64,000 bases of DNA, from positions 1-64,000 of the forward strand of contig JADNRX010000079.1 of assembly GCA_015501595.1 (NCBI GenBank), read 5' to 3'. Below, piece by piece: positions 1-42,454 of this stretch. Position numbers and translations under genes: made by a program. Origin of the DNA: Hymenopellis radicata. Its lineage: Eukaryota; Basidiomycota; Agaricomycetes; Agaricales; Physalacriaceae. The notes beneath the pieces are model-generated. The model was not told where the DNA came from, did not search any database, and saw only the letters and a list, made by a program, of their open reading frames with translations. Each line of letters starts with the position of its first letter. Positions within the stretch are counted from its first letter, which is position 1.

Positions 1-600
1 CCAGGGAAATCGACATCTTCAAAAGATATCCTCGCGATGGGCAAAGCTGCTAGAGCTGCGCGAATCGCAGTCGACCATTGCCCAATCCCTATGTCCCAGA
101 AGCCTTTGGTGTCCATTACTTCGATTTCTGAGACGTTTATGAGTAAGGAAAGTGTTTGGGCAGCTACTTCTTGACAATGGATTGGGGGAAACGCGTCCCG
201 GATGCGTAGGGCGCGGTAACTACGCGCAATGTGGGGAGAATATGACAAGATATCAAGGAACTCGGCGTAGTATGCATGAGTGGTAAGCGTCATCTGCGGA
301 TCGACCGTGCGGAAGAGATATTGGATGGTTTGGGCGCGGAATGAGCGCGAGGTTACAGAACATGATAATAGATCTTCGCGACACGATCGAGTCAAGTTAT
401 CCTTCGCATCCTTTTCCACTAGATCATCGACGATTTGATTTATCAGCTCCTGTGGCAACGGATTGCGATCTGGATGGATAGCGCTCCTGGAGCAGAGAAC
501 TGAGAGAGGGTGGGCGAATCAGAGAGGCACGCTACCTTGAAGGAGTCGGATCATAGCCACTTTCTCGTACGGACGACTTCCTATGCCACTTCCATTTCAT
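1..600 (-). CDS. F-box-like protein, left-arm copy (5' part, runs off window)
   Basis: This is the mirror image of the gene starting at 41120 and keeps the same two-exon beginning. The start is the ATG complementary to 598-600. A short basic first exon is followed by a 49-bp-type intron and then an exon opening with the F-box-like segment LPQELINQIVDDLVEKD. F-box proteins recruit substrates to SCF ubiquitin ligases, and Agaricomycetes have large families of them with weak LRR-like tails. The 3' part lies beyond the window, so intactness cannot be judged. Position 1 pairs with about 41719. Family assignment rests on the N-terminal motif only. Confidence 0.6.
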
Positions 601-1835
601 GTTTGCTACCTCCTCCTTGACGGTGGAAGATCCTGTTAGACAGTCAATGATGGCGGTTGAGAACAACGTTTTTGTATGCGGCATTTGCCGATCATTTGGC
701 GTTCATGAGAAAGTTCCTGAATGGACCAACGCGTCAACGCCCCCAAAGCGATGTTTATGGACTCGCGTTTAAGACGGGCAACAATATCGACTCGAAGACG
801 AATTAGAGTACTTTGACCCTCAGCGCGATAAGTGGCATCCTCACCACTCACTCTGCCCACGCCTCGTGAACCTGTCGACACTTTCTCAGGATCGAGATAC
901 TAGTCTGCAAATATGCATTACGCGCATAGTAATACGATTATGGCAGACGCGACAAAACGGGTAACGAATATGAGCACTACAGACGGGATGTAAGCAAAAC
1001 ACTACGAGGAATCATGCTTACCACTCATAAAATTGAAACCTCTCCTCATTCCCTTATTTGTGCTAGATGGCTGTCACTGCTTCTGCTCCAGAACCCTATC
1101 AAGGTGCATTCCCCAAGCATTCCCTGCTGTAAATTCACGTTCACCCGGCGCACGCGCGCAGACAGTTCCGCGATATGCGTAACATCCTCTCTCTCCCACC
1201 CAAGGGATTCCTTTGGACGTACGCCCACGTTCTTTGTCCACCTGTTTTCGAGGATTGTCGGGAAGCGACCTCTCGTCGTCAGCAGGAACGTTTCGTGAAG
1301 GCAAATTCCTGCATTGCGCCGCTCGCTTGCATGAAGCGTTTTCGCGTGAAGTAGTTATGCTGTTGAATGCTCTGCAGTACATTGATGAGCAAGACGAGAA
1401 ATGAGAGAATGGCCCGTACCATCCGCGTAGTATACCGCTCTGTCTCGTTTTTCCCGTTTCTATTACTTCTATGGTCATGGCTTTGGGGACTCAGCTTTAA
1501 TCGTTCAACCGTACGGCCTCCTAGTCGCGTCAGGTGTCGTCGACGACAAATCTCCAGGTGTTATCTAGTCCATTGGCCATAAGGTATAAAATGGTGAGAT
1601 GGCTGCTGGTAAGAGGCAGAGGTGTGTAACCTTAACCCTATCGGACTCCCAAACTAGTCAAGTCCACCTTGTAGCATGCCTGTACATGAAGTAAAGAGGT
1701 GTTCTCCAATTTCAATCCAGAAGCCGACAGAACGGTGACGAGTGTTAATGCGCCATTCATTGTGAATACAGCAACCTGCATAGGCAGAAAGATAACATGC
1801 AAACAAAACTACAGAAAGAGGGTGTAGCATCATAC
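601..1835. other. no supported gene; duplicated intergenic sequence
   Basis: Nothing here reads as a convincing exon series. Up to about 1658 the stretch mirrors 40130-41119 of the right arm. At 1660-1830 it mirrors a short part of about 39230-39390 and lacks both the extra right-arm sequence and the hAT-like element found there. A telomere-like variant sits at 1626-1640. Confidence 0.5.
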
Positions 1836-2300
1836 TCATCTGTCAAAGGAAGGTAAGCTCTAGTCGTGATACATCAGACAAAAGACCAACCTCGTCACCA
1901 CCGCCATCCAACGTCTCACGCAGGTTCGCGTTATCCCGCATCCAGACCCCAAGGCTAAATGGCGACGCTTCTGATGATGTTCGGCGGGTGGTATCCGTAG
2001 CCACCGATTCAAGTATCGGCACCCGGACGCGTACGTTCCGTGATGGAGCACCGGAACGGGAGAAAACCGACACTTGTCGGTCCAGAGGAACCTTATCCTG
2101 TTTTCGCTGAGGAGTCCGGGGGATTCGTGGTTGCAGGCTGAGTGTCGGCATGCATGGTGTTCTATACAAAGCTCAGGACATGGTAAAGGGGGGAGTGAAG
2201 CGGCGTACTGTCTATACGAGGTCCTTGGTTGCACTTTTATGTCTTCCTTGCTATCAAAGTGCTGAGGCCTGTCTAAGTCATCTGTCCCGGCCAAAGCATA
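1836..2300 (-). pseudogene. divergent coiled-coil gene copy, left arm, decayed
   Basis: Segments in different minus-strand frames match the N-terminal half of the coiled-coil protein at 32262-32803, including the PLDRQ stretch and the KRR-containing basic patch, and the 3' end keeps the ATGAGTATGATG exon start. No single frame stays open, and the heptad region is broken by indels. The mirrored copy is at 38182-38920. Origin as an old paralogue of the coiled-coil family is inferred from these shared landmarks. Confidence 0.55.
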
Positions 2301-2394
2301 AGCGTCAGTGAGGTCAGCAAGATCGGGAAGGTCGAATGGGTCGAAGGGCAGGCTTTAACACTAATAACAGGAAAAAAGGACAGATTACCTGGAT

Positions 2395-2411
2395 GTAACC
2401 CTAACCCTAAA
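2395..2411. repeat. interstitial telomere-like motif
   Basis: Two to three units of CCCTAA follow the shared 12-mer GTAACCCTAACC. The same 12-mer, or its complement, recurs at 9392, 20743, 31970, 38121 and 40151. Confidence 0.7.
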
Positions 2412-2519
2412 ACTGGAATCCTGGCGCAGTAACGACAGACCATTAACACATCTTGGATGTCAATACCAATTGGAATGCAAAGGAAAGGACAGTTGATCAA
2501 GAGTCTACTACAAAGGATC

Positions 2520-3613
2520 TTTCCATGCCCAAATTTCTCAAACTGGCAAACCAACATTAGCAACGCAAACGAAGAAACTACGTCGTACACTCACCAGCTC
2601 TTGGAGGTCTTTCCAAGCACGACGTTCGACTGCGTCTCCGCCTGGTACTGCATCAGGGTTACCAGTAGCATCTCCCGCTTCAGCAGTGGCGCTGGGTTCT
2701 CCTTCCGTTGCAGCAGTAGCGCTAGCGCCATCTTCCGGTCGATGGTCGCGTTAGGATCAACGCTCAAAGTCCCAGACGGTTCAGCGCTCAATGACTCGCC
2801 GCCTCCTCCATACTTCTTGTTATATTCCAGCTATAATCAAGAGAATGTAAACATCGCACACTAGACAGCGAAAAAGGAAGAAACGTACGACGGTCATGAC
2901 GGTGTTCGTGCCGTCCAAGAAATATCCAATGACCTTTCCAGCTGCATCAAGTTTTGGTTTTCCAACCCGAGCTCGGGCCGTCAGCGGTAACATCTGGGTT
3001 CGCACTGGTAAGCGTGCCGGAAGGCGAGTCGGCCTTAGTGGAGCTGGGTGCACCAGTCTTGCTGGACTGCGCAACGCTCTTAGTCGAGCTGGGCGATTCG
3101 GTCTTGGGACTTCCGGAAGCAGATGGGGAACCTGTCTGCGTAGTAGCTTTAGTAGCTGACGGCGAACTGGTTTTAGTTGGCGTGGCTTTGGTGATGGAAG
3201 AGGCAGGGCGATCGGTTTCGGATGGTGTATTCTTGGTAGTGGAAGGGGGCGGGGGCTTCTTGGTAGTGGGAGGAGGCGGGGACTTCCTGGTAGTGGGAGG
3301 AGGCGGGGACTTCCTGGTAGTGGGAGGAGGCGGGGGCTTCCTGGTAGTGGGAGGAGGGTGCCTGTTCTTCGTCTTGGGCAGCTTGATACCCTTCCCTAGG
3401 CCGGGAACGGCATTTGCAAAGCCAGCCTGCCGCTTGTCATTCTAAAGAGATTATTTAGGGCGATAATGGTGGGCGCGTATAATAAGCACATACCTGTGAA
3501 TCGCAGCTAAGCGGTCGCAGATGGGCAGGCAAGTGACAGCGGTCCTCCATGGGTAACGCATGCGAGGCCAGCGTTAGGGCAAGGAGGACAAATACGACGT
3601 TGACAGAGCCCAT
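2520..3613 (-). pseudogene. secreted Pro/Thr-rich repeat protein, left-arm copy, frameshifted
   Basis: Mirror copy of the gene at 36866-38005. The signal peptide exon (ATG complement at 3611-3613), the Pro-rich repeats and the first two introns are conserved. Compared with the right copy there is one extra A near 2961, inside the codons for GWKPKLD, which brings an immediate stop, and one missing C near 2735, in the codons for IDPEDG. The left copy also has one fewer 27-bp PPPTTRKSP unit, and its last exon diverges after FEKFGHGK. Either the copy is dead or the consensus has single-base errors; the extra A alone truncates the product. Confidence 0.7.
3240..3357 (-). repeat. 27-bp coding minisatellite (PPPTTRKSP units)
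   Basis: Tandem 27-bp units encode nine-residue Pro/Thr/Arg/Lys repeats inside the secreted protein copy. The left arm has two Ser-type units where the right arm has three. Confidence 0.8.
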
Positions 3614-4044
3614 AATGAAAGTAGAGAGGTGTGTTTGGTGGAAAGGTTGGTGTACTGGACCGGCCAATACAATGGGGAGATGTGGGTGATGAAGCGCCTG
3701 GCCTGATGAGGAATAACAGCGCGTCCCGGACTCTTTATACTGCACTACTTAGCCGTAAATGGTGACCGTGTTGGGCATGTTGTGTCTGCATCTTGGAGAC
3801 GCTCGCGGATTCCGTCTGTGCGTCGAAAATCCATCACAGTTGGACGCGGAATCCTGTCAAAGTGGAGCATTCGTCGTAAAGAAAGCCATTATTCTCGTCG
3901 TCGATGGCGACGACGACAGCGCTCCGCAAGTTGCTAGAGATTCCATTGAGATCGTGGTCAAAAGCAAGGCGTTTTCGGAGTCATCGGACTCTCCATTATC
4001 GGCCCGGGCCGAAACCTGCGGCTTCCGCCAGCACGGACTGTTAA

Positions 4045-4515
4045 GAGCCTGTCCGGTGTCAGTCGGTCCTACCAGCCAAAACCCAGTCGCGAGTATTCTG
4101 AGCACGACTAGGCACCGGATGAAAATTTGGGACTGTCACGCAGCCTTTCTTCCGACAAGTCCGATGCCCCGGCATCACTGACCCCGTCATTTGATCACTG
4201 TTTCCGCCTACCCTTGGCACATCCCGAATGCCCGCTCACTGTCTGGTATAATTTTTTTGGCATTTTTTTCACTTGGATTTTGTACTCTTCCTGTCCATCT
4301 TTGCTTAGCCTTCACAATAAAAATGATTCAAATGAATTTTAATTTTTTCTACATGGTACAAAGCACAAAGAACAACCAAAGTACGGGCAGTGGGCGGGAG
4401 GGCGGTATCTCTGACAGAATTGGACGAGTGACATGATGTGACTAGCTCGGTCCGATTTGACGGACTCGGGGTAGTCGTGAGTCGATCGTAGGACCGACTG
4501 ACACCGGACAGGCTC
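4045..4515. mobile_element. MITE-like element with 28-bp perfect TIRs and TAA target duplication
   Basis: The element begins GAGCCTGTCCGGTGTCAGTC and ends with its exact reverse complement; the match extends over 28 bp. It is flanked by TAA on both sides (4042-4044 and 4516-4518). The right arm has the matching empty site near 36410-36425 with a single TAA context. A 3-bp TWA duplication with long TIRs is typical of PIF/Harbinger-derived MITEs. No transposase is present in its 471 bp, so it is non-autonomous. Confidence 0.85.
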
Positions 4516-4671
4516 TAAATCAACCAGCTTGTACTCTTCTCTTTTGCGAAGGAATTCGACGTAATTTACAGCACCGTTGAGGGTAAGCCTTATACCCCAA
4601 AACATAATGCTTATCGGACTGCGAGAAAGGCTCATTGGTCCTACGCCTACGTCGCACCCATTCGCCCCACA

Positions 4672-5057
4672 AAGAGCGCAGACTCGATCAGTCTAACTCG
4701 GACGACGGCGATAAGGAAGAGGCTTTACTAATCCTGTGACGACACTGACAGCGAAGCCATCAAAACCCGCCACCCAACCCAAAAGCAGCCAACCGCCACC
4801 TGCCGCCACTTTTTTTATATACTATTCCGTGACCGCTGACCGCCGCTAACCCCCCTAACCATAACCGAACCCTTACCGAGCCCTTACCGAGCCCTTACCG
4901 AACCCTAACCGACCCCCCGAACCTACCCCGACCCCGAACCCTTACCTAACTGGGAACCGCCCAAACCGATCCCGCAGGTTAACTACGTCATCTTCGTCAT
5001 CGCGCTCGTCCCTATCGTTATCTCCGTCCTCCGAGTTAGACTAATCGAGTGTCTGCT
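4672..5057. mobile_element. hAT-like MITE with 8-bp target duplication and C-rich core
   Basis: The 386-bp insertion is bounded by GCCCCACA on both sides (4664-4671 and 5058-5065). The right arm carries the uninterrupted site once, near 36265-36280. The ends are imperfect inverted repeats of about 25 bp sharing CTCGAT(C/T)AGTCTAACTCGG. An 8-bp duplication points to the hAT superfamily. The core (4845-4950) is strand-biased, with repeated CCCTTACCGAG-like units. No coding capacity was seen. Confidence 0.8.
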
Positions 5058-5065
5058 GCCCCACA

Positions 5066-6227
5066 ATGGACGGGGGTAAATGAGTTTACAGCTCTCTTCT
5101 GTGGCCCGAGCTTCCTCTACAAGAGGAACCGAAAATACAAACCCTGCACGACCGACTAGCTTTCGCCTCCGAAATTGGTAACCAGGTAAGTAGCAACGTC
5201 ACATCTCATGCGCCTTGCTTCCGGACCATCACTGTCAGTAAAATCTGGATTCTGACCAGCAGCTTCTGTATCCACCCAGCTTTCCCCAAGTTGAAGGGTA
5301 GAAAGCCCAAAGTATGGTATGTACGATGAGCGCTACTCTATTTGAACACGTCGAAGGCGCGTTATCACTGACTTTCAAGCAGCATAGCCTTTTTTTGAAA
5401 ACCTTTAACCCTGCTGTGTCTCGCACTCGGCGCTACGTGTATATCTCATCTTGCATTCTGGGTGAAGCCCGTAGCTCATCGGAGAATTCTCGTGGACATC
5501 CTGGGCCACCTCTGGCTGATGCTGAAGAACTTACACTACGCAGTGTCTACCATGAATCTGTGTAACGCTGTCCCTCAATACTGTCTAGCAGCTTTGCTGA
5601 AAGCTCTCTTTCCGTGGAGCTAACGGCCGAGTCGAATCCCAACTGATACCAGAAATGAACGCGTCTTGTACGTTAGCAATGCGCACACACACTTGATTTA
5701 ATCCCGATATACGAAGGACTGCTCGCTTGGTCTAGTCCCCAAGATTGACCCTTACGGACTGCGACGGCTCCTCATAACTTTTCGCCGTGATTTTCTATAT
5801 GTGTCCCTTCTTTGGTCTGTGTACGTCTGAACAGACGGCTTGACCGAATCCACGCCTGGCGCGATTAACCTTTTTCTGTTGCATAAATTTTCCCGATCGT
5901 AAACCCGTGTCCTAGTCTTGATTCTTTCAGCGTATTCTCGTTTCTGCAACGCCACACTTCTTGATGGCAGTGCATTGTCCCCGTGGATGGCGCTGTAACT
6001 TCTGTTATATTATCAATGGTGCCACACAACCCTAACGCAGTACTTCGTCTATCCATTGTTCCGGGCAATGCCTGTGGACAGTCCAAACCAAGTAATTCAG
6101 TTGGGTGGACGCGCACGTGACCAAAACTTATTTATTGTAGGCCTTTGTCGACACCTTTGGCTCTCACTCACAACCACGAACGTTGCCACTCCCTCTACAG
6201 ATATTTCCCAACCATAACGAAACTTCT
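5066..6227. other. no supported gene; arm sequence
   Basis: Conserved with 35135-36270 of the right arm, but no frame gives a recognisable or well-supported exon series. The last part should contain the promoter and 5' leader of the HMG-box gene. Confidence 0.4.
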
Positions 6228-6942
6228 ATGGCCTCATCCACGACAGTTTCCCAGTTCGCGGCTCAACTACAACGCCTTTCGCTCCTGCTCCAGCCATGTC
6301 TGCGAAGGATTTCATCCTACAGTACATGAAGGACACGCAGGTCGATCCCGTCCACGGCAAAATTCCGCGCGCAGCGAACGCGTTTGTGATCTTCAAGAAG
6401 TATTATCAACTGCCGCCTATCGGAGCGGGCGCAGTTTGGCAAACTCTCGCAGCAGATGAGCGTGGTCCGTTCTTCGATGCTCAAGAGACTGCAAGGGTGT
6501 TGCACAAGGAGATGTATCCTGATTACGAGTTCACAGCCGAAGGGAGAGCCGCAGGTGCAGACATCGCATGAGACGAGACGCACGTTGAACGCATCCGTGA
6601 TGCCAGTCAACCATACCACTCCTTTCACCTTCACCGCGCCCGCGCCGAGCCTCTTAGCCCCAGTGCAACCTATCCACCAAGACTACCATGCGCACCACTA
6701 CGGCTACGCTGATGAAATGAGCGCCGCTTTCGATGGAGTTGACCTTGCGAACGACTTGTTCAGTTCATACGACGTGCGTTCCTTTCCTCTCTTTGATATT
6801 ATCGACATGGTTCTCATTCATGTGTGGTATTTAGATTGCAGAAGTCGCTCCTTATCTCTTCGAATCTTTCGAGACCAACGTCCTTGCTGATATGAACAGC
6901 GAGCTCGACTTGGCTATAGATGCTGAGACTGGTTTGTCTTAG
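6228..6942 (+). pseudogene. HMG-box gene, left-arm copy, broken by +5 and -5 indels
   Basis: Mirror copy of the intact gene at 34429-35131. Five extra bases (CAACT) near 6264 throw the first ATG out of frame, and five bases (AAGCC) are missing near 6532, just after the box. From the first ATG translation stops early. From an internal ATG at 6296 a 91-residue peptide keeps most of the HMG box but loses the C-terminal half. The second-exon stop codon is also changed, so reading continues to 6942. A truncated DNA-binding peptide is possible but speculative. Confidence 0.75.
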
Positions 6943-7257
6943 TCTTTATTCCTTTGTGCCTTTCACCGTCGATCTATTTACCTTCTTGGACTATGAAATA
7001 CCTGGTTATGTATGCTGCTCATTTATGATACCCCGCTGTCCGATATCTTTGTCGTGTACTTGCTTCGTTGTACTTCATATACTCAGTTATCACCCCATTA
7101 TGAAAGCCTCAAGTTTCACAAATGCAGAAGCTGGATGTCATACAGGATGCCTCTCAGTCCCCGAGACGAAGACGGGTTTATGAAGACGTCGATTGGATTG
7201 AACTGAAGTAGATACTTCGCTCTTGAGCCACAGTTCAGTGTCGTCTCCGCCTGGGCT

Positions 7258-7780
7258 TTACGCCCCAGATGCCTTCATCTCCGCTTCGACAAAGCCTTTC
7301 ACAAACCCGCTATCCATAAACTCGGTGATCCTCCTGATCTTCTCCCCTTCAACCTCAACAATGAACATATATTCGTTATGCCACGGCGTTCCCAGCTTTG
7401 ACGTGCCGTCCGAATTCACCTGCACAACATCATCAGTATCGTCTAGACCTAGACAGCGAACCAGACTGACGTGAGCGATGATTCTGTTCTCAGATTTGGT
7501 CTCGTAGACTTCGTGGACTGTGAACTAACAAAATCACGTCAGGAAAGCAAAGATGATTTACGAGGCGAGTTCGTACCTTCAACGCTCCGGGCGCGAACCA
7601 CTTATTAACACTCTGTTCCAGAGTCTCCAAAAGCTGGGACTTCGCCTGAACAGGAATCCCCGCCGACGCCGGTTTGATAGTCAACTCAAAGTCGTCTGTG
7701 AACAACGCCAGCACTGTGTCCCAGTCAAGGGCGGATGCCGCGGTCAAGTAGGAGTGGAATAGGGCGGTGGCTGCAGGCAT
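7258..7780 (-). CDS. SnoaL-like (NTF2-fold) protein, left-arm copy
   Basis: Nearly identical to the right-arm gene at 33573-34095 and uninterrupted. Exon 1 encodes MPAATALFHSYLTAASALDW and the following WDTVLALFTDDF segment; exon 2 encodes the HNEYMFIVEVEGEKI strand and the ITEFMDS motif. The fold is a small alpha+beta cone with a pocket, used by polyketide cyclases, isomerases and many uncharacterised fungal proteins; no substrate can be assigned. A 51-bp segment with GTCAGT...GTGCAG ends could be an in-frame intron, giving 139 rather than 156 residues. It is the only gene that appears intact in both arms. Confidence 0.7.
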
Positions 7781-8540
7781 GGAGGAGAGTGGTAGGTTTA
7801 AGTTGACCGGGTGCCCGTCTTTTAAATGTGGAGGATTTACATTTGTCACCGGGTAATATACCGAAGGAGCCGTGAGTATATAGTACGCCCGAATAGGTTA
7901 GACATATCCATGTATTCCGACGTGCTGGGAGGGGTTCGTGACCATGGAAGAGAAATGACCAGATGTACTTCCTGAGGACAGTTAGCGCCGGCGTATAAAT
8001 GTACTCTTTGTCCGCCACTTGTGGTACGTGACCGAAGAGAGGATCTGAAGGCCAAGTGTGACGCCCATGAGGATAAAATTGCGGGCGCTAGAATTCAGAA
8101 CGACGACCTCCACGCAGGAAGTCGAACAACCGGGCGAGTCTGGGCCTAGTAAGCTATGTGATGTGCTGGCCCGGCTTAGGCCTCAAGCCTGGGGCTACGG
8201 CCTGGCTTGAGGCGGCTCTGGCTTTAGATAACCTCAGGCGGCCAGGGGGGCGTGCTCGGGCGCAAGACGCGGCTTTGAGCGGGCGATGGCAGGATGCGGC
8301 GGGGGTGGCGCATGACACATTCAGTCATCCTACAACACCCCGAAATGACCTAGGTGACGCTTTGGAGGTGTTTGGGAGACTCACCGACTCACAGCCGTTC
8401 CTGACTGGAATACTTGGGGCAGAAAGGGCAAAGATCGACGCAAATTATCGCTCATATTTTCGGAAAACAACATGAATTGCATGGGCAAACAGAGAAAAAC
8501 ACATAACATGGAGACGAAACCAAGAGAAGGAGCATAGGAT
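7781..8540. other. no supported gene; includes GC-rich palindromic stretch
   Basis: Upstream of the SnoaL gene and downstream of the coiled-coil gene. At 8160-8300 there is GC-rich sequence built of GGCCTCAAGCC/GGCTTGAGG-type inverted repeats, mirrored at 33010-33190. The open plus-strand frame there reflects GC bias and has no recognisable product. Confidence 0.4.
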
Positions 8541-9099
8541 CTAAAACGCGTCTAGTCCGCCTGGCATCATACTCATCTGTGGAAGCGAAATGAGCCGTAG
8601 TCACGATAAAACAGACCAGAACGAACCTCATCATCACCGCTATTCAACTTTTCCCGCAGCTTCGTGTTTTCCTCCACGAGAATCCATTTCTCTTTACATG
8701 CGGTCCTATACCGCGACTCCATGTCACAAAGCCTCTGCTTCAAGACCCAGATCGTCGTCTTGGCATCAGCCATCTCTTGCTCGAGCTCATCGTTCCGCGC
8801 GTGGAGATCCTTATTCTCTTCGCAGAGTGTAGCGTACCCCCGCCCGAGTTTAAACGGCGACGTTTCTGATGATGGTCCACAGCGAGAGGATGACATGAGG
8901 TTGTGGCATTCGTGCCAGCCACCGATTCAAATGTAGCGATATGTCGGCATCCGTACGTTCCAGGTTTTGGCGACAACTCGGGTGAAGGAGCACTGGAGCG
9001 GGAGAAGCTCGACGCTTGGCGGTCCAGAGGGACCGTATCTTGTTTAGTTGGTCCTTGTTCAAGACCGAAAGGAGGGTTTTGAGCGATAGAGGATTGCAT
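8541..9099 (-). pseudogene. coiled-coil protein gene, left-arm copy, frameshifted
   Basis: Mirror copy of 32262-32803. The start (complement of 9097-9099), basic KRRRL patch, heptad region and short last exon (SMMPGGLDAF) are all present. One base is missing in the G-run near 8840 (NSGWGYATL in the right arm), which separates the N-terminal part from the coiled coil. The copy also sits at one end of the direct duplication shared with 20086-22243. Confidence 0.7.
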
Positions 9100-9391
9100 G
9101 TCGGTACCCTTTGTGACCTAGACGAATCTCAGAATAGAGACTATGGGAGGATTGCAGTGGTTTACCGTCTATATGCGGTCCAAGGTGGCATTTTTATGTC
9201 TTCCTGGCAGGCCCTATCCAAGTGCTGAGACCCTTTGTGTAGTCATTTGTCCCGGTCAAAGCCTAAACGTTTAGGCAGCAACGCCGAGGGCCAAATCCAA
9301 GTTCGAGTCAATGAGTCAATCGACGCGCGCTGACGAGAGAAGAGGCCAAATGTGCAAAGGCATAGTGGTGGTACAGAAGCAAAGAAGGACT

Positions 9392-9403
9392 GTAACCCTA
9401 ACC
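9392..9403. repeat. telomere-like 12-mer GTAACCCTAACC
   Basis: Part of the conserved leader about 290 bp upstream of the coiled-coil start, near the inner boundary of the inverted repeat. Also present at 20743 and, inverted, at 31970. Confidence 0.7.
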
Positions 9404-24745: not shown

Positions 24746-24799
24746 TCCGCGTGGTTGATAACGTTGAACTAATATTGTTGTGAGAGAGATATTAGAAGG

Positions 24800-33572: not shown

Positions 33573-34095
33573 ATGCCTGCAGCCACCGCCTTATTCCACT
33601 CCTACTTGACCGCGGCATCCGCCCTTGACTGGGACACAGTGCTGGCGTTGTTCACAGATGACTTTGAGTTGACTATCAAACCGGCATCGGCGGGGATTCC
33701 TGTTCAGGCGAAGTCCCAGCTTTTGGAGACTCTGGAACAGAGTGTTAGTAAGTGGTTCGCGCCCGGAGCGTTGAAGGTACGGACTCGCCTCGTAAATCAT
33801 CTTTGCTTTCCTGACGTGGGTTTTTCAGTTCACAGTCCACGAAGTCTACGAGACCAAATCTGAGAACAGAATCATCGCTCACGTAGGTCTGGTTCGCTGT
33901 CTAGGTCTAGACGATACTGATGATGTTGTGCAGGTGAATTCGGACGGCACGTCGAAGCTGGGAACGCCGTGGCATAACGAATATATGTTCATTGTTGAGG
34001 TTGAAGGGGAGAAGATCAGGAGGATCACCGAGTTTATGGATAGCGGGTTTGTGAAAAGCTTTGTCGAAGCGGAAGTGAAGGCATCTGGGGCGTAA
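33573..34095 (+). CDS. SnoaL-like (NTF2-fold) protein, right-arm copy
   Basis: Exon 1 (33573-33776, 68 codons) and exon 2 (33829-34095) flank a 52-bp intron. The product shows the order helix, FTDDFELTIKP, LLETLEQ, FTVHEVYETKSENRIIAH, HNEYMFIVEVEGEKIRRITEF. Fungal relatives usually pass directly from the AH strand to a SDGTSKLG-like turn. This favours removing an additional in-frame 51-bp intron (33883-33933, GTAGGT...TGCAG), which would give 139 residues. It is likely a cytosolic small enzyme or binding protein with unknown ligand. The neighbouring HMG-box gene converges on it from the minus strand. Confidence 0.75.
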
Positions 34096-34428
34096 AGCCT
34101 AGGCGGAGACGACACTGAACTGTGGCTCAAGAGCGAAGTATCTACTTCAGTTCAATCCAATCGACGTCTTCATAAACCCCTCTTCGTCGGGGACTGAGAG
34201 GCATCCTGTATGACATCCAACTTCTGCATTTGTGAAACTTGAGGGTTTCATAATGGGGTGATAACTGAGTATATGAAGTACAACGAAGCAAGTACACGAC
34301 AAAGATATAGGACAGCGGGGTATCATAAATGAGCAGCATACATAACCAGGTATTTCATAGTCCAAGAAGGTAAATAGCTCGACGGTGAAAGGCACAAAGG
34401 AATAGACAAACCAGTCACGATACCCGGT

Positions 34429-35131
34429 CTACTCGGCATCCATAGCCAAGTCGAGCTCGGTGTTCAGATCAGCAAGTCCGTTGGTCTCGAAAGATTCGAA
34501 GAGATAAGGAGCGACTTCTGCAATCTAAATACCACACATGAATGAGAACCATGTCGATAATATCAAAGAGAGGAAAGGAACGCACGTCGTATGAACTGAA
34601 CAAGTCGTTCGCAAGATCAACTCCATCGAAAGCGGCGCTCATTTCGTCAGCGTAGCCGTAGTGGTGCGCATGGTAGTCTTGGTGGATAGGTTGCACTGGG
34701 GCTAAGACGCTCGGCGCGGGCGCGGTGAAGGTGAAAGGAGTGGTATGGTTGACTGGCATCACGGATGCGATCAACGTGCGTCTCGTCTCATGCGATGTCT
34801 GCACCTGCGGCTCTCCCTTCGGCTGTGGCTTGAACTCGTAATCAGGATACATCTCCTTGTGCAACGCCCTTGCAGCCTCTTGAGCATCGAAGAACGGACC
34901 ACGCTCATCTGCTGCGAGAGTTTGCCAAACTGCGCCCGCTCCGATAGGCGGCAGTTGATAATACTTTTTGAAGATCACAAACGCGTTCGCTGCGCGCGGA
35001 ATTTCGCCGTGGACGGGATCGACATGCGTGTCCTTCATGTACTGCAGGATGAAATCCTTCGCAGACATGGCTGGAGCAGGAGCGAAAGGCGTTGTAGCCG
35101 CGAACTGGGAAACTGTCGTGGATGAGGCCAT
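34429..35131 (-). CDS. HMG-box (MATA_HMG-like) transcription factor, intact right-arm copy
   Basis: Two exons (34586-35131 and 34429-34524) separated by a 61-bp intron encode 213 residues. The HMG box spans about residues 44-103. It opens IPRAANAFVIFKKYYQLPP, compare the RPPNAFILF start of fungal boxes, and continues with AVWQTLAADERGPFFDAQEAARALHKEMYPDYEF. HMG boxes bend DNA at AT-rich sites; in fungi this subgroup includes mating and development regulators. The C-terminal half is rich in Pro, Thr and Ala with a His-rich patch, as in an activation domain. The ATG at 35131 was chosen; an in-frame ATG at 35176 would add 15 residues. The left copy is frameshifted. Nothing in the window shows it to be a mating locus. 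Confidence 0.8.
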
Positions 35132-35184
35132 GGAAGTTTCGTTGTGGTTGGGGAATATCTGTAGAGGGAGTGGCAACGTTCGTG

Positions 35185-36730
35185 GTTGTGAGTGAGAGCC
35201 AAAGGTGTCGACAAAGGCCTACAATAAATGAGTTTTGGTCACGTGCGCGTCCACCCAGCTGGTTTGGACTGTCCACAGGCATTGCCCGGAACAATGGATA
35301 GACGAAGCACTGCGTTAGGGTTATGTGGCACCATTGATAATATAACAAAACTTACAGCGCCATCCACGGGGACAATGCACTGCCATCAAGAAGTGTGGCG
35401 TTGCAGAAACGAGAACACGCCGAAAGAATCAAGACTAGGACACGGGTTTACGATCGGAAAAATTTATGCAACAGAAAAAGGTTAATCGTGCCAGGCGTGA
35501 ATTTGTACAAGCCGTCTGTTCAGACGTACACAGACCAAAGAAGGGACAGATAGAAAATCACGGCGAAACGTTATGAGGAGCCGTCGCAGTCAGTAAGGGT
35601 CAATCTTGGCGACTAGACCAAGCGAGCATTCCTTCGTATATCGGGATTAAATCAAGTGTGTGTGTGCATCGGTAACTTGCAAGACGCGTTCATTTCTGGT
35701 GTCAGTTGGGATTCGACTCGGCCGTTAGCTCCACGGAAAGATGACTTTAGAGAGCTTTCAGCAAAGCTGCTAGGCAGTATTGAGGGACAGCGTTACACAG
35801 ATTCATGGTGGACACTGCATAGAGTAAGTTCTTTAGCATCAGCCCAGGATGTCCACGAGAATTCTTCGATGAGCTACGGGCTTCACCCAGAGTGCAAGAT
35901 GAGATATACACGAGCGCCGAGCGCGAGACATAGCAGGGTTAAAGGTTTTCGAAAAAAAGGCTATGCTGCCTGAAAGTCAGTGATAACGCGCCCTCGACGT
36001 GTTCAAATAGAGTAGCGCTCATCGCACATACCATACTTTGGGCTTTCTACCCTTCAACTTGGGGAAAGCTGGGTGGATACAGAAGCTGCTGGTCAGAATC
36101 CAGATTTTAGTACTGACAGTGATGGTCCGGAAGCAAGGTACTTACCTGGTTACCAATTTCGGAGGCGAAAGCTAGTCGGTCGTGCAGGGTTTGTATCTTC
36201 GGTTCCTCTTGTAGAGGAAGCTCGGGCCACAGAAGAGAGCTGTAAACTCATTTACCCCCGTCCATTGTGGGGCGAATGGGTGCGACGTAGGCGTAGGACC
36301 AATGAGCCTTTCTCGCAGTCCGATAGGCATCAAGTTTTGGGGTATAAGGCTTACCCTCAACGGTGCTGTAAAATACGTCGAATTCCTTCGCAAAAGAGAA
36401 GAAGTACAAGCTGGTTAATTTAACAGTCCGTGCTTGGTCCAAGCTTGGTGCTGGCGGAAGCTGAGTTCGGCCCGGGCCGATAATCGAGAGTCCGATGACT
36501 CCGAAAACGACTTGCTTTATACTACGATCTCAATGGAATCTCTAGCAACTCGCGGAGAGCTGTCGTCGTCGCCATCGACGACGAGAAGAATGGCTTTCTT
36601 TACTACGAATGCTCCACTTTGACAGGATTCCGCGTCCAACTGTGATGGATTTTCGACGCACAGACGGAATCCGCGAGCGTCTCCAAGATGCAGACACAAC
36701 ATGCCCAACACGGTCACCATTTACGGCTAA
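35185..36730. other. no supported gene; arm sequence
   Basis: Open frames exist on both strands (for example 35656-35973, +) but lack recognisable motifs, and no homologous frame is kept clearly in the left arm. It contains the empty target sites of the two left-arm MITEs. Confidence 0.4.
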
Positions 36731-36739
36731 GGAGTGCAG

Positions 36740-36745
36740 TATAAA
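36740..36745 (+). promoter_or_regulatory. TATAAA box of the secreted Pro-rich protein gene
   Basis: TATAAA lies 121 bp upstream of the start codon at 36866. The left copy keeps the mirrored box near 3735-3740. Confidence 0.5.
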
Positions 36746-36865
36746 GAGGCCGGGACGCGCTACTATTCTTCATCAGGCCAGGCGCTTCATCACCCACATC
36801 TCCCCATTGTATTGGCCGGTCCAGTACACCAACCTTTCCACCAAACACACCTCTTTACTTTCATT

Positions 36866-38005
36866 ATGGGCTCTGCCAACGTGGTATTTGTCCTCCTTGC
36901 CCTAACGCTGGCCTCGCATGCGTTACCCATGGAGGACCGCTGTCACTTGCCTGCCCATCTGCGACCGCTTAGCTGCGATTCACAGGTATGTGCTTATTAT
37001 ACGCGCCCACCACTATCGCCCTAAATGATCTCTTTAGAATGACAAGCGGCAGGCTGGCTTTGAAAATGCCGTTCCCGGCCTCGGGAAGGGTATCAAGCTG
37101 CCCAAGACGAAGAACAGGCACCCTCCTCCCACTACCAGGAAGCCCCCGCCTCCTCCCACTACCAGGAAGTCCCCGCCTCCTCCCACTACCAGGAAGTCCC
37201 CGCCTCCTCCCACTACCAGGAAGTCCCCGCCTCCTCCCACTACCAAGAAGCCCCCGCCCCCTTCCACTACCAAGAATACACCACCCGAAACCGATCGCCC
37301 TGCCTCTTCCATCACCAAAGCCACGCCAACTAAAACCAGTTCGCCGTCAGCTACGAAAGCTACTACGCAGACAGGTTCCCCATCTGCTTCTGGAAGTCCC
37401 AAGACCGAATCGCCCAGCTCGACTAAGAGCGGTGCGCAGTCCAGCAAGACTGGTGCACCCAGCTCCACTAAGGCCGACTCGCCTTCCGGCACGCTTACCA
37501 GTGCGAACCCAGATGTTACCGCTGACGTCCCGAGCACGGGTTGGAAACCAAAACTTGATGCAGCTGGAAAGGTCATTGGATATTTCTTGGACGGCACGAA
37601 CACCGTCATGACCGTTGTACGTTTCTTCCTTTTTCGCTGTCTAGTGTGCGATGTTTACATTCTCTTGATTATAGCTGGAATATAACAAGAAGTATGGAGG
37701 AGGCGGCGAGTCATTGAGCGCTGAACCGTCTGGGACTTTGAGCGTTGATCCTAACGCGACCATCGACCCGGAAGATGGCGCTAGCGTTACTGCTGCAACG
37801 GAAGGAGAACCCAGCGCCACTGCTGAAGCGGGAGGCGCTACTGGTAATCCTGATACAGTACCAGGCGGAGGAGACACAGTCGAACGTCGTGCTTGGAAAG
37901 ACCTCCAAGAGCTGGTGAGTGTACGACGTAGTTTCTTCGTTTGCGTTGCTAATGTTGGTTTGACAGTTTGAGAAATTTGGGCATGGAAAGATCCCGACTC
38001 TGTAA
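36866..38005 (+). CDS. secreted Pro/Thr/Ser-rich repeat protein (extensin-like)
   Basis: Four exons (36866-36985, 37038-37616, 37675-37914, 37967-38005), all joined in phase 0, encode 325 residues. A signal peptide (about residues 1-20, core VVFVLLALTLASHALP) precedes a short Cys-containing segment, then PPPPTTRKS repeats, a Ser/Thr/Lys-rich stretch (heavily O-glycosylatable) and a conserved block around KPKLDAAGKVIGYFLDG. An acidic Gly-rich tail ends FEKFGHGKIPTL. It is likely a cell-wall or extracellular protein. It has no enzymatic motif, and the Cys content is too low for a hydrophobin. The left copy has one repeat unit fewer and is frameshifted. Confidence 0.75.
37118..37270 (+). repeat. 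27-bp coding minisatellite
   Basis: About five to six units of CCTCCCACTACCAGGAAGTC-type sequence encode the nine-residue Pro/Thr/Arg/Lys repeat. Confidence 0.8.
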
Positions 38006-38120
38006 ACATGTCGGTCAACGTGTAGACTCTTGATTAACTGTCCTTTCCTTTGCATTCCAATTGGTATTGACATTCAAGTGTAATGGTCTGTCGTTACCGC
38101 GCCAGCGATTCCAGTTTTGG

Positions 38121-38132
38121 GGTTAGGGTTAC
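38121..38132. repeat. telomere-like 12-mer GGTTAGGGTTAC
   Basis: Located between the Pro-rich gene and the divergent coiled-coil copy; mirrored at 2395. Confidence 0.7.
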
Positions 38133-38181
38133 ATCATCTTCTGTATGATGCAGGTAATCTGTCCTTTTTTCCTGTTAAAGC

Positions 38182-38920
38182 GTGCCCTTCGACCCATTCG
38201 ACCTTCACGATCTTGCTGACCTCACCGACGCTTATGCTTTGGCCGGGACAGATGACTTAGACAGGCCTCAGCACTTTGATAGCAAGGAAGACATAAAAGT
38301 GCAACCAAGGACCTCGTATAGACAGTACGCCGCTTCACTCCCCCCTTTACCATGTCCTGAGCTTTGTATAGAACACCATGCGTACCGTACTCGGCCTGCA
38401 GCCACGAATCCCCCAGGACTCCTGCTCAGCGAGGACTAACCAAACAGGACAGGGTTCCTCTGGACCGACAAGCGTCGATTTTCTCGTGTTCCGGTGATCC
38501 ATCACCCGAGCCGTGGAACGTACGCGTCCGGGTTCCGACATATCGCTATACTTGAATCGGTGGCTACGAATACCACCCGCCGGGCAGCCCCTCTTGACCT
38601 CTCGGACATCATCAAAAGCGTCGCCATTTAGCCTTGTGGTCTGGATGCGCCAACTACACGATGAGAACAAGGATCTTCGAGCAAGGAACGATGAATCGAG
38701 CAAGAGGTGGCTGATGCTGCGCCGACGATATGGGTGCTGGTGTTGAAGCAGAGGCTTCGTGATATGGAGTCGCGTTATAGAAGGGTGTGTAAAGAGAAAT
38801 AGATGCTCGTCGAGCATAATGCGGAGCTGGATGGAGGTGGTGATGAGGTTTGTCTTTTGTCTTTACATGGTGACTAGGGCTTACCTTTATTGGACAGATG
38901 AGTATGATGTGGGCGCGGCT
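38182..38920 (+). pseudogene. divergent coiled-coil gene copy, right arm, decayed
   Basis: Pieces in three frames match the coiled-coil family: PLDRQASIFS, the tract around DENKDLRARNDE, and a last-exon start ATGAGTATGATG at about 38897. Stops and indels separate them. A 5' segment beginning MPFDPFDLHDLADLTDAYAL is open for 85 codons but joins no recognisable protein. Mirrored at 1836-2300. Confidence 0.55.
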
Positions 38921-39111
38921 TAATTGCCGCTTCATGTTTTGATTACTAGGTCGCTTTCATTCAGGCTTTAGCTCCGAGTCCTCGACTAGACGCATTTTGA
39001 GCGCCACTTGGGTTCCGCGCACCATCTCCCCAGCCGTCGTCAAAGTGCGGTACACATGGATTCTTTTGACTGCACGGAACCTCGGAACGGTCAACGTTCC
39101 AGCAATCGCCA

Positions 39112-39240
39112 ATGAATTCGATTCCCGACGTAGCGCGCCGTATTCTTGAAACCGCTGCGCTCCTTGATAGGTTGGATGCAACGCGACTTGTCTGGACCTC
39201 GAAAGCAGTACATAGATGGCAAGTTCCCGTAATTGTGTAA
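39112..39240 (+). pseudogene. F-box-like N-terminal fragment
   Basis: A 42-residue frame starting MNSIPDVARRILETAALLDR and continuing DATRLVWTSKAVHRW resembles the N-terminal F-box of Agaricomycete families (proline, hydrophobic spacing, then a Ser-Lys-x-Val-x-x-Trp ending). It stops soon after. Homology to the left arm resumes around 39230, with the left arm lacking this part. It is probably a truncated gene, with the hAT-like element inserted 150 bp downstream. Confidence 0.35.
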
Positions 39241-39388
39241 CTCTAAACCAGTTCCCTAACAGACCTCATAGGAAGGCCAAAATTCTATGCACAATCATTG
39301 CCGCACTGGCACATATTGGTTTCTGTCGGCTTGTGGATTGGAATTGAAGGATACTTCTTTGTTTCCTACACATGCATGCTGGCTACAG

Positions 39389-40113
39389 CAAGGGGTACCC
39401 AGCACTCTAATCGACCGGGCCAACTAGGTGGTGGTGGGTGGGTAGTCGAGTCCGCGGGGTCCTGAAAAACACAGCCACGAAGGTTTTCTGCTGCAAAGTT
39501 TGTAACTTCATGTACACCACATAAAATAATATATTTTACCTGGCCAATGTCTTCAGAATGCGAATAAATGTAGTTCCCCATACTAATATCAATAATTCTG
39601 GTGCAGCAGAGCGAAGGGTGCGCTGAATTCACGAAGTCTGTTGGCTCTTGACCCGAATTGGGCAATAGCGAGACGCGTGAGCAGCTTGCTATGCGCGCAG
39701 TTCCCAACGCAGCCGCACAGCGTCTTACTGAGCATTCCTCCCAAGCACATCTTAGCAAAGTGGCTGTTGAACGATATCTCCTAACTGGCTTGTATGGTAA
39801 CCTGAGTGTACCGTTACTTGTGCAGCAGAGCATTGCTCCGTCATGCTCACTGCTCACTTATCTTTGACATCATTTGCTTGATGTGTTCTTTCTCGAATCT
39901 CTCTGCGATAAAGTGGCGCTCTCTACACGAGACCGCAATCTGCGCAGAGGTGCGGACGCGCCATCGGATGGAGGCAATAACATTTGATGGTACGCATGAA
40001 CAGGCACAGAAAATTACCATAAACTGGTGGTGGTGGGTAGGTCGAGTTCTCGGGGTCCTGCCACTCTATTTCGTGTAGTCAGATTCTTGGATTAGAGTTC
40101 TGGGTACCCCTTG
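39389..40113. mobile_element. hAT-like non-autonomous element with 8-bp target duplication
   Basis: The 725-bp element is flanked by GGCTACAG at 39381-39388 and 40114-40121. The terminal inverted repeats match over 24 bp with one mismatch (CAAGGGG... with a shared CTCTAATC). The left arm lacks it. Subterminal direct repeats GGTGGTGGTGGGT...GGGGTCCTG lie at 39430 and 40026. The 8-bp duplication supports hAT. No transposase domain was recognised in its frames. Confidence 0.8.
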
Positions 40114-40150
40114 GGCTACAGAACAAGTTTATAGTTTGGGAGTCCGATAG

Positions 40151-40162
40151 GGTTAGGGTTAC
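40151..40162. repeat. telomere-like 12-mer GGTTAGGGTTAC
   Basis: Follows the hAT-like element; the mirrored left-arm site (1626-1640) is a degenerate version. Confidence 0.65.
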
Positions 40163-41119
40163 ACCCCTGTTACCAACAACCATCTCACCATTTTATGTCT
40201 TATGGCTCCTGTTTGCAGACTCGAGCCAGCCAATGGATTAGATGTGGAGGGATTGAACGATTAACAAGTCCCCAAAGTCATGCCTTCAGAGAAACGGAGA
40301 AAAACGAGACAGAACGGTAGAGACTCCACGCGGAGGGTACGGGCCACTCTCTCATTTCTCGTCTTGCTTATTAGGCAGAGCATCCAACACGCCCTCACGA
40401 ATCGTTCCACGACAAGAGGTCGCTTCCCAACAATCCTGGAAAACAGACGGGCAAAGAACGTGGGCGTACGTCCGACGGACTAGGAAGGAATCCCTTGTGT
40501 GGGAGAGTGCGTCACGCATATCGCGGGACTGTCAGCGCGCGTGCGCCCGGTGAACGTGAATTTACTGCAGGGAATACACCTTGATAGGGTTCTGGAGCAG
40601 AAGCAGCGACAGCCATCTAGCAAGAATAAGGGAATGAGGAGAGGTTTCAATTTTATGAGTGGTAAGCATGATTCATCTAGGTAGTGTTTGTTTACTTACA
40701 TCCCGTCTGCAGCGCTCATATTCGTTACCCATTTTTGTCGCGTCTGCCATCGTCGTAGTACTATGCACGTAATGCATATTTGCAGATGACTAGTATCTCG
40801 ATCCTGAGAAAGTGTCGACCGGTGGCCGCGAGGCGTGGGCAGAGTGAGTGGTGAGGATGCCACTTATCGCAGATAAACGCTGAGGGTCAAAGTGACAATG
40901 ACAAAGTCTAATTCGTCTTCGAGTCGATATCGTTGCCCGTATTATGTAAACGCGAGTCCATAAACATCGCTTTGGGGCGTTGTTGACGCGTTGGTCCATT
41001 CAGGAACTTTCTCATGAACGCCAAATGATCGGCAAATGCCGCATACAAAAACGCTGTTCTCAACTGCCATCATTGACTGTCTAACAGGATCTTCCACCGT
41101 CAAGGAGGAGGTAGCAAAC
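40163..41119. other. no supported gene; arm sequence upstream of the F-box gene
   Basis: Mirrors 601-1625. Short frames only; presumably includes the F-box gene promoter. Confidence 0.45.
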
Positions 41120-42454
41120 ATGAAATGGAAGTGGCATAGGAAGTCGTCCGTACGAGAAAGTGGCTATGATCCGACTCCTTCAAGGTAGCGTGCCTCTCTG
41201 ATTCGCCCACCCTCTCTCAGTTCTCTGCTCCAGGAGCGCTATCCATCCAGATCGCAATCCGTTGCCACAGGAGCTGATCAATCAAATCGTCGATGATCTG
41301 GTGGAAAAGGATGCGAAGGATAACTTGACTCGATCGTGTCGCGAAGATCTATTATCATGTTCTGTAACCTCGCGCTCATTCCGCGCCCAAACCATCCAAT
41401 ATCTCTTCCGCACGGTCGATCCGCAGATGACGCTTACCACTCATGCATACTACGCCGAGTTCCTTGATATCTTGTCATATTCTCCTCACATTGCGCGTAG
41501 TTACCGCGCCCTACGCATCCGTGACGCGTTTCCCCCAATCCATTGTCAAGAAGTAGCAGCCCAAACACTTTCCTTACTCATAAACGTCTCAGAAATCGAA
41601 GTAATGGACACCAAAGGCTTCTGGGACATAGGGATTGGGCAATGGTCGACTGCGATTCGCGCAGCGCTCGCAGCTTTGCCCATCGCGAGGATATCTTTTG
41701 AAGATGTCGATTTCCCTGGTGTAGACGATTTTGTTCACCTTGTTTTGGATTGCTTTCCAAGGGTGGAGTATCTCTATTTTCACAGGGTTAGCGAGGGCCC
41801 AAGAATCGCGTGGCGTTTGGAGCCGGATGTTCAACGGCAGACTCTCCGACGCTCTGTTATCTCAAGGAGATCATACATCGCTCATCGCCTACTCCAGACC
41901 TATTAGCAGCTCTTGGGCGGGCCGTGTGGGAAAAGTGGCGCGTCTTGAGACGTTGGACATGTATGACGCGCAAATTGATAGCGTGTCTCTTGCCGGGTTT
42001 TTAGGAAGCTTGTCTCTCCGAACGCTCCATATGCCGATGTATGTTCAGAGTGGTAAGCGATCATGAGTGACCGCGCTCTCTGGGTCTAATTCAGTGGTTT
42101 CCAGGACCCGTACCGTGCCCATTTACGAGCCTAGAGACATTGACACTCTCTTTCCGAAATTTCACCTGGCTCTTAAGCTCGATTCCACTGCTTCCCGAAG
42201 GCGCATCACGCTTGAGGACTATTGTCATCCGTAACGATCCACCCTTTCAGACAGGATGGAATCTTGATGAAAGTGCATGTTGGCAACATTTTGATGATCT
42301 TGCTGCTTCGTATTTGAATGCATTGACGACGGTACAGATGGAGAGTTATCGTGAACCGTTGATCACTTGGATCAGGATTAATTGCTTGCGCCTCGCGGAG
42401 CGTGGGGTCTTTCAATGGATAGTAGATCCATGGGAACAGTGGAGGTATATGTGA
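41120..42454 (+). CDS. F-box-like protein with LRR-like tail, right-arm copy
   Basis: Exon 1 (41120-41184) encodes a basic leader. A 49-bp intron (41185-41233) is followed by RSAIHPDRNPLPQELINQIV, the F-box-like start. Leucine-rich strands follow (PHIARSYRALRIRD, NVSEIEVMDTKGFWD, RLETLDMYDAQIDSVSLAG). The last exon, from about 42104 after a GTAAGC...TTCCAG intron, gives CPFTSLETLTLSFRNFTWL and ends at 42454. Between about 41790 and 41945 the coding frame changes twice without clear introns, so the middle is unresolved or damaged. It is a likely SCF adaptor; the target is unknown. The 5' half is duplicated at 1-600. Confidence 0.6.

What the first reader, a model, noticed from the sequence alone, without database searches (positions are those of the whole stretch)
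1..41719. Large inverted duplication flanking an iron-uptake cluster
Two arms of at least 9.4 kb in opposite orientation enclose a 22.4 kb spacer that carries FRE, FTR1 and FET3. Such a structure could let the whole iron cluster flip by recombination between arms, or form foldback amplicons under iron stress. The arms are diverged, so the duplication is not an assembly artefact of identical haplotypes, though a misjoin of two haplotypes should be excluded.
Basis: partly seen in the sequence, partly recalled or inferred. Interest (0 to 1): 0.75.

Follow-up and report, generated by a model that had tools for sequence, protein, structure and literature searches.

The report
Two-nucleus inversion mistaken for inverted duplication
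In a mushroom genome that mixes the sequences of two nuclei, what looks like a giant mirror-image duplication around iron-uptake genes is most likely the two nuclei's versions of one neighbourhood stitched together because the iron-gene block sits in opposite directions in the two nuclei.

Summary
The inverted arms are in the sequence (1-9484 against 41719-31899), around a spacer with FRE, FTR1 and FET3. They are most likely not a duplication. The window starts contig C1173 of a 75.5-Mb assembly that matches the mushroom Hymenopellis radicata. The iron block "I" (21378-31893) occurs once more, on contig C752 (97.9%), flanked there by a different inverted pair, Y. Probes from X (the window's arms; two) and Y (one) find two full-length copies each, always on opposite sides of one I. 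X arms differ by 3.6% substitutions, Y arms by 3.8%, like five allelic-looking pairs measured here (2.4-4.8%). The flank beyond X has an allele on C413, that beyond Y probably on C766. Exchanging contig halves inside the near-identical I makes both haplotypes colinear, P-X-I-Y-Q, with I as one 10.6-kb inverted block; the large inverted repeats vanish. Best reading: a heterozygous inversion of the FRE-FTR1-FET3 block, with about 0.5 kb lost at each breakpoint, made the assembler switch haplotypes inside I. "Diverged, so not an artefact" fails: the divergence is allelic in size. No reads were available, so truly palindromic haplotypes (X-I-X, Y-I-Y) are not excluded.

The parts
1..9484 (-). Left arm X_b (one allele of X); inner end at 9484, outer end cut by the contig start
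   Evidence: inverted match to 31899-41719; contig start; 3.62% substitutions
9485..9965 (.). Linker U_L between X_b and the FRE fragment; absent between right arm and I
   Evidence: junction sequences
9966..10829 (-). Duplicated 3' part of FRE (fragment)
   Evidence: 3 substitutions in 861 bases against 21378-22253, 19 in 852 against C752
10830..20085 (.). Insert; longer stretches of 10960-19112 match repeats elsewhere in the genome at about 68-86%
20086..20815 (-). X_c: third, direct copy of the arm's inner 0.73 kb
20816..21377 (.). Second copy of linker U_L
21378..31893 (.). Iron block I, shared with C752:16681-27243 (97.9%); inferred to be inverted between the two nuclei
21761..24335 (-). 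FRE (ferric reductase) exons; approximate limits from open frames
   Evidence: FAD_binding_8 in 22595-23053; frames 21761-22372 and 23788-24201 gave no family above cut-off; frames
27199..28759 (-). FTR1 iron permease (limits read by eye from the sequence)
   Evidence: PF03239 in 27456-27893; sequence
29447..31720 (+). FET3 ferroxidase (limits read by eye from the sequence)
   Evidence: PF07731 in 30614-31540; the six best hits are 65-69% identical, those with a name from Agaricomycetes or 'iron transport multicopper oxidase'; sequence
31894..31898 (.). Junction of I right end with right arm, without linker and without shared sequence beyond a few bases
31899..41719 (+). Right arm X_a (other allele of X); carries HMG-box-like, SnoaL-like and F-box-like ORFs (the last two below Pfam cut-off)
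41720..56208 (+). Flank P: one full copy found for 41720-45700, 46000-49000 and 53650-56208 (45701-45999 and 49001-53649 not tested apart); probably collapsed
56209..64000 (+). Flank P with allele on C413:1- ; substitution-free to 58358, then diverged

Best explanation
The window is part of a mixed two-haplotype assembly of a mushroom (very probably Hymenopellis radicata, sequenced as a dikaryon). The locus in both nuclei is P - X - I - Y - Q, where I is the 10.5-kb FRE-FTR1-FET3 block. In one nucleus (alpha) the order is P-X_b-linker U_L-I-linker U_R-Y_a-Q. In the other (beta) I is inverted and both linkers (about 0.5 kb each) are lost: P-X_a|I inverted|Y_b-Q. Because I is nearly identical in the two nuclei, the assembler crossed from one haplotype to the other inside I. 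Crossing over inside an inverted segment, here done by the assembler, joins X to X and Y to Y, which gives contig C1173 (X_b-I-X_a-P) and contig C752 (Y_b-I-Y_a-Q). The inverted duplication is thus an artefact; the real feature is a heterozygous 10.5-kb inversion. Shown: copy numbers found by probes, divergences, junction sequences, colinearity after exchange. Inferred: the switch itself, the nuclear origin of each half, and that end-joining-like breakage made the inversion.
For: (1) Copy number: two X probes (1-3000, 6000-9000) find full-length copies only in the two arms of C1173; one Y probe (C752:42520-45725) only in the two arms of C752; the I probe two copies, C1173 and C752. Shorter partial relatives exist elsewhere for all three. 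(2) Substitution divergence: X 287/7,939 (3.62%), Y 547/14,454 (3.78%); allelic-looking pairs P1/P2 beyond 58358 2.87%, Q1/Q2 4.76%, C670/C472 2.40%, C1173/C413 near 163 kb 3.82% and near 157 kb 4.45%. (3) Flanks: P has an allele on C413 starting at window 56209, Q a probable one on C766 starting at C752:58655. (4) C413 begins with 2,150 alignment columns free of substitutions against C1173, then diverges at 58359: the picture of a collapsed or homozygous tract, which also explains single-copy P. (5) At the four junctions (X-U_L-I, I|X_a, Y_b|I, I-U_R-Y_a) I see by eye only a few shared bases, so the long shared sequence in which a join error could lie is I, with substitution-free tracts of 1,296 and 1,284 columns. 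(6) Exchanging the halves inside I gives colinear X and Y on both sides and I as one 10,586-column minus-strand block; within alpha no large inverted repeat is left, only two inverted pairs of 0.69 kb (90.5%, across I) and 0.65 kb (76%, inside Y) among matches of 300 bp or more. As deposited, the two contigs share besides I only SnoaL-like patches of up to 1 kb and the FRE fragment, at that length. (7) The FRE fragment next to X_b and the left end of the window's I share 18 sites against C752, so this end goes with X_b, as the model requires. (8) C610/C246 (2 substitutions, 23 gap openings in 9.8 kb) indicate indel-noisy long reads; phase switches are called widespread in a Nanopore dikaryon assembly (PMC8957140, passages).
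Against: No reads, depth or Hi-C could be examined. Alleles of P 41720-56208 (parts tested) and of Q at C752:51000-54000 were not found; I read them as collapsed, but they could be absent from one nucleus, which would favour palindromic haplotypes. The Q allele is less sure than the P allele: a local family gives further matches at C766:26784-27514, C766:33337-35230, C752:107022-107752 and C752:114042-115916 (72-93%), and C766 differs from C752 from its first bases on (88% over 815 bp), so the collapse signature seen at P is not seen at Q. I itself differs by only 1.28% and P1/P2 as a whole by 1.84%, less than the arms. The third copy X_c/FRE fragment must be a real extra duplication, and its parts differ unevenly (FRE part 0.35%, linker 3.1%, arm part 4.5%), which the model does not explain. 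The search tool can lose true matches (searches did not return their own query).
Confidence: 0.74

Rival explanations
1. Real palindromic haplotypes: one nucleus carries X-I-X and the other Y-I-Y, each as a true inverted duplication around the iron block, and the contigs are correct.
For: Both contigs are continuous without N over the 104 and 60 kb read, all junctions are clean, and alleles of the inner P and Q flanks were not found, as expected if each nucleus lacks the other arm type.
Against: Needs two independent inverted duplications at one locus plus loss of the other arm in each nucleus, and further unseen junctions to C413 and C766. Arm divergence is allelic in size. Arms show no recent homogenisation (longest exact matches 213 and 407 bp). 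One exchange in I explains the arrangement.
Confidence: 0.12
2. Haplotype misjoin without any real inversion: the junctions I|X_a and Y_b|I are themselves false joins, and I has the same orientation in both nuclei.
For: The assembly is redundant and indel-noisy (C610/C246), so false joins are plausible; it would also make each arm pair allelic.
Against: The two junctions show only a few shared bases at which a false overlap could form, and two such joins would have to arise independently at the two ends of the same block.
Confidence: 0.09
3. One reading: recurrent flipping of the cluster by homologous recombination between the two arms, or foldback amplification.
For: Arms are long, inverted and flank the cluster.
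Against: Arms 3.6% diverged with many indels, no long identical tracts; the other copy of the block has different arms; the inferred inversion breakpoints lie at the inner ends of the arms with loss of linkers, not inside repeats. In the known yeast case the repeats are almost identical (PMC9731477, abstract).
Confidence: 0.04

Closest known systems
Phase-switch errors in dikaryon assemblies (Puccinia triticina; PMC8957140, abstract and passages seen)
   Same: Contigs of a two-nucleus fungus that change from one haplotype to the other; in the HiFi assembly there mostly at haplotig boundaries
   Different: Here the switch falls inside a segment that is inverted between the haplotypes, so it fakes a large inverted duplication instead of being silent
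Saccharomyces 'flip/flop' 24-kb inversion polymorphism (PMC9731477, abstract and outline seen)
   Same: A small multi-gene block present in two orientations within a species
   Different: There, almost identical 4-kb inverted repeats are homogenised and re-create the inversion; here no inverted repeat was found at the breakpoints, and the apparent arms are read as alleles
Reductive iron assimilation cluster FTR1-FET3 with ferric reductase (recalled as a known arrangement; Pfam hits)
   Same: FTR1 and FET3 divergently arranged, FRE nearby
   Different: Nothing unusual in gene content was found; only the orientation is inferred to differ between nuclei

Membership tests
Haplotype phase switch / chimeric contig | Arms are present in the copy number of two alleles, not more | tested here: met
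   X probes full length twice, Y probe twice, I probe twice; the inner 0.73 kb of X has a third copy
Haplotype phase switch / chimeric contig | Divergence of the arms equals allelic divergence | tested here: met
   3.62% and 3.78% against 2.40-4.76% in five allelic-looking pairs, three of them C1173/C413; I itself 1.28%
Haplotype phase switch / chimeric contig | Near-identical stretch at which the switch could occur | tested here: met
   substitution-free tracts of 1,296 and 1,284 columns in I
Haplotype phase switch / chimeric contig | Reads stop supporting the contig at the switch; depth doubling in collapsed parts | not testable with these tools
   no reads held
Heterozygous inversion | Same segment in opposite orientation between colinear flanks in two haplotypes | tested here: inconclusive
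   met only after the contig halves are exchanged inside I
Heterozygous inversion | Divergence highest near the breakpoints | tested here: met
   500-bp windows of I: 3.1% at the left end, 5.2% in the last full window, 0-2.2% in all windows between 22378 and 30377; coding constraint not controlled
Inverted-repeat-mediated flip/flop | Near-identical, homogenised inverted repeats at the ends of the block | tested here: not met
   arms 3.6% diverged, longest exact match 213 bp
Inverted-repeat-mediated flip/flop | Inversion breakpoints inside the repeats | tested here: not met
   inferred breakpoints at the inner ends of the arms with loss of linkers; the inverted SnoaL-like pair across I in alpha lies away from them
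Reductive iron assimilation cluster | FTR1, multicopper ferroxidase and ferric reductase genes side by side | tested here: met
   PF03239, PF07731, and PF08022 in one of three FRE frames scanned

The most novel reading that the evidence does not exclude
The contigs are right: each of two nuclei of one mushroom carries the same iron-uptake block inside its own, largely unrelated pair of inverted arms (X-I-X against Y-I-Y), a palindromic, nucleus-specific structure like a small non-recombining supergene.
Probability: 0.11. Interest if true: 0.75.

Novelty: new member of a known kind. Interest (0 to 1): 0.32.

Why it matters
It shows how a heterozygous inversion plus one haplotype switch makes a convincing but false giant inverted duplication: crossing over inside an inversion, done by the assembler. 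Paired contigs with X-I-X and Y-I-Y architecture are a signature by which hidden heterozygous inversions can be found in other dikaryon or diploid assemblies. If the inversion is real, the nuclei of one mushroom place the iron-uptake block in opposite orientation, next to different neighbours at each end, which can be tested for nucleus-specific expression.

Tried and rejected
Chance similarity was rejected (E = 0.0). An untrimmed-adapter hairpin read was rejected: a 22-kb spacer separates the arms and they differ by 3.6%. A telomere-adjacent palindrome was considered: one tandem CCCTAA pair near window 2399 and none in C752:1-60000. Inversion by recombination between the SnoaL-like inverted pair was rejected because X inner sequence reaches directly to I in the right arm and to the linker in the left. 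A mating-type locus was considered because X and Y differ between the contigs; no homeodomain or pheromone-receptor search was run, and after the exchange X and Y are colinear alleles, so it was dropped. The HMG-box-like part of X has 1-kb relatives at C796 and C1080 (92%), so it is not peculiar to this locus. The insert 10830-20085 was not identified; searches failed because its frames hold stops. Seven paper searches (listings seen) showed no title or abstract start that describes this locus; this does not show that none exists.
Full report
WHAT IS THERE. The window is G000:C1173:1-64000, the first 64 kb of a 178-kb contig in an assembly of 75,490,766 bases and 1,405 contigs. Self-comparison confirms inverted arms: 1-9484 (X_b) against 41719-31899 (X_a), in large blocks of 91-94% with many indels and one block of 70%. 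Counting substitutions only, over blocks longer than 200 bp, they differ by 287 of 7,939 bases, 3.62%. The spacer holds FRE (minus strand), FTR1 (27199-28759, minus) and FET3 (29447-31720, plus); domains (for FRE one of three frames scanned), limits of FTR1 and FET3 read by eye. It also holds a third, direct copy (20086-22253) of the arm's inner end, the linker and the FRE 3' part (8714-10829), behind an insert of 9.3 kb with relatives in many contigs. The outer end of the left arm is the contig end; the right copy of an F-box-like ORF runs on past 41719 (F-box E = 0.067, below Pfam's cut-off).

THE ORGANISM. An F-box protein encoded at 61884-63623 finds hypothetical proteins of Hymenopellis radicata on a contig of 129,999 bases, exactly the length of C413. 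P0121 aligns to C413:5477-5998 at 97.7% and to 5364-5444 at 81%; the mismatches probably come from alignment running past an exon border, which I did not check residue by residue. The deposited genome of strain IJFM A160 comes from a project that used Illumina and PacBio reads, Velvet, AllPathsLG or Falcon, finisherSC and Quiver (PMC8480192, passages and one section; which assembler served this strain was not seen). A related monokaryon, Oudemansiella raphanipes, is 60.2 Mb (PMC9961838, section 3.1). H. radicata MG139 shows 4.23% heterozygosity and is called dikaryotic there, but its average identity to the other H. radicata strain is only 85.8% (passages), so it is a weak yardstick. So 75.5 Mb fits a partly split, partly collapsed two-haplotype assembly. 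That IJFM A160 was sequenced as a dikaryon is my inference from the paired contigs.

THE SECOND CONTIG. The iron block I (21378-31893) has one further copy, C752:16681-27243, 97.9% identical. C752 (238 kb) also begins at base 1 inside an arm: it has its own inverted pair Y, 1-16681 against 50165-27825, 547 substitutions in 14,454 (3.78%). X and Y are unrelated except for SnoaL-like patches of up to about 1 kb and a further patch of 0.14 kb. The flank right of the X arm (P) has its allele on C413, which begins at window 56209. The flank right of the Y arm (Q) has a probable allele on C766, which begins at C752:58655; a local sequence family with copies further along both contigs makes this assignment less certain. 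So one locus is represented by four contig ends: X_b outer end, Y_b outer end, C413:1 and probably C766:1.

COPY NUMBERS. Two probes from X (1-3000 and 6000-9000) find full-length copies only in the two arms of C1173; a 1-kb HMG-like part has relatives at C796 and C1080, 92%, and smaller pieces match elsewhere. One probe from Y finds full-length copies only in the two arms of C752; a 1.5-1.7-kb part has relatives at C596 and C275. P was single-copy at full length in 41720-45700, 46000-49000 and 53650-56208; 45701-45999 and 49001-53649 were not tested apart. For Q at C752:51000-54000 the matches other than itself were 64-74% identical, apart from two pieces of 55 bases at 80-82%. The tool can lose matches: the 10-kb queries did not return themselves.

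WHY ALLELES AND NOT A DUPLICATION. Divergence between the X arms and between the Y arms lies inside the range of five allelic-looking pairs measured (2.40%, 2.87%, 3.82%, 4.45%, 4.76%), three of which are C1173/C413. Other comparisons of that call: I 1.28%; P1/P2 with its identical start 1.84%; C610/C246 0.02% (2 substitutions but 23 gap openings in 9,838 bases, a redundant contig that shows the indel noise); one pair of loci did not align and was dropped. C413 starts with 2,150 columns free of substitutions against C1173 (one single-base gap) and diverges from 58359 on. That is how a haplotype contig looks where it leaves a collapsed or homozygous tract, and it explains why the inner P is single-copy. 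The same signature is not seen at C766, which differs from C752 from its first bases on.

WHY AN INVERSION. At the four junctions X_b-U_L-I, I|X_a, Y_b|I and I-U_R-Y_a the sequences on either side share only a few bases, judged by eye. A false overlap cannot easily arise there; it can arise inside I, where substitution-free tracts of 1,296 and 1,284 columns occur. I cut both contigs at one identical place in I (window 29000, C752:24310), exchanged the halves and compared the products. The result is two colinear haplotypes: X blocks and then Y blocks in the same order and strand on both sides, and I as one 10,586-column block on the minus strand. Alpha alone keeps no large inverted repeat: among matches of 300 bp or more, only a 0.69-kb pair (90.5%) of SnoaL-like sequence across I and a 0.65-kb pair (76%) inside Y. 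One inversion and one switch replace two independent inverted duplications, two losses and further unseen junctions.

BREAKPOINTS. The inversion ends lie 173 bp beyond the FET3 stop and a few hundred bp beyond the FRE 3' end (approximate). Relative to alpha, beta lacks linker U_L (0.48 or 0.56 kb in its two copies) and U_R (0.58 kb), with junctions of little or no homology; end joining after two breaks is the inferred cause. Divergence of I is 3.1% in the first and 5.2% in the last full 500-bp window and 0-2.2% in every window from 22378 to 30377. This fits suppressed exchange near inversion breakpoints, but also constraint on coding sequence or mixed reads in the middle.

WHAT REMAINS OPEN. 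No reads, so neither switch nor inversion is shown directly. The direct duplication X_c-U_L-FRE fragment is uneven: the FRE part differs by 3 of 861, the linker by 15 of 480, the arm part by 33 of 729. The FRE fragment and the window's FRE share 18 sites against C752, so the left part of I goes with X_b, as the model requires. Palindromic haplotypes (X-I-X, Y-I-Y) stay possible at about 11-12%.

COMPARISON. Phase switches are documented in dikaryon assemblies (PMC8957140, abstract and passages). The Saccharomyces flip/flop inversion depends on almost identical 4-kb inverted repeats (PMC9731477, abstract); here the arms are 3.6% apart with a longest exact match of 213 bp, so that mechanism is not met.

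VERDICT. Observation confirmed; interpretation as a duplication able to flip or fold back not supported, the flip itself probably real between nuclei; best reading a heterozygous inversion of an iron-uptake block seen through a haplotype-chimeric contig.

Noticed in passing
window 8714-10829 and 20086-22253: Direct duplication that includes a 3' fragment of FRE; its parts differ unevenly (0.35%, 3.1%, 4.5%), perhaps by local gene conversion.
   Followed up: partly
window 10830-20085: Repeat-like insert without a stop-to-stop frame above 255 residues; longer relatives at about 68-86% in many contigs; family not identified.
   Followed up: partly
C1173:162885-163186 and C413:76941-77218: Small fragment on both contigs that carries a piece of FRE next to a piece of arm X, on C1173 about 130 kb from the locus.
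   Followed up: no
window 3203-3378 and 37074-37289: 27-bp tandem repeat in a proline-rich ORF; 5 register copies listed in one arm and 6 in the other (reference lengths differ), as length alleles often do.
   Followed up: no
window near 28638 (FTR1 exon 1, minus strand): The window's copy differs by one base in length from C752, and its frame then meets a stop (read by eye); consensus error or real, not decided. Of 15 single-base gaps between 26750 and 30258, 14 are bases missing in C1173.
   Followed up: partly
C752:31229-38790: About 7.5 kb present in arm Y_a and absent from Y_b, with ORFs of 575 and 330 residues; perhaps a transposable element, not identified.
   Followed up: no
window 20037-20080 and 56158-56201: 44-bp motif, 93% identical; one copy ends 5 bases before X_c, the other 7 bases before the point where C413 begins.
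   Followed up: no
C752:57000-60000, C752:107022-115916, C766:26784-35230: Local sequence family repeated in flank Q on both contigs, 72-93% alike.
   Followed up: no
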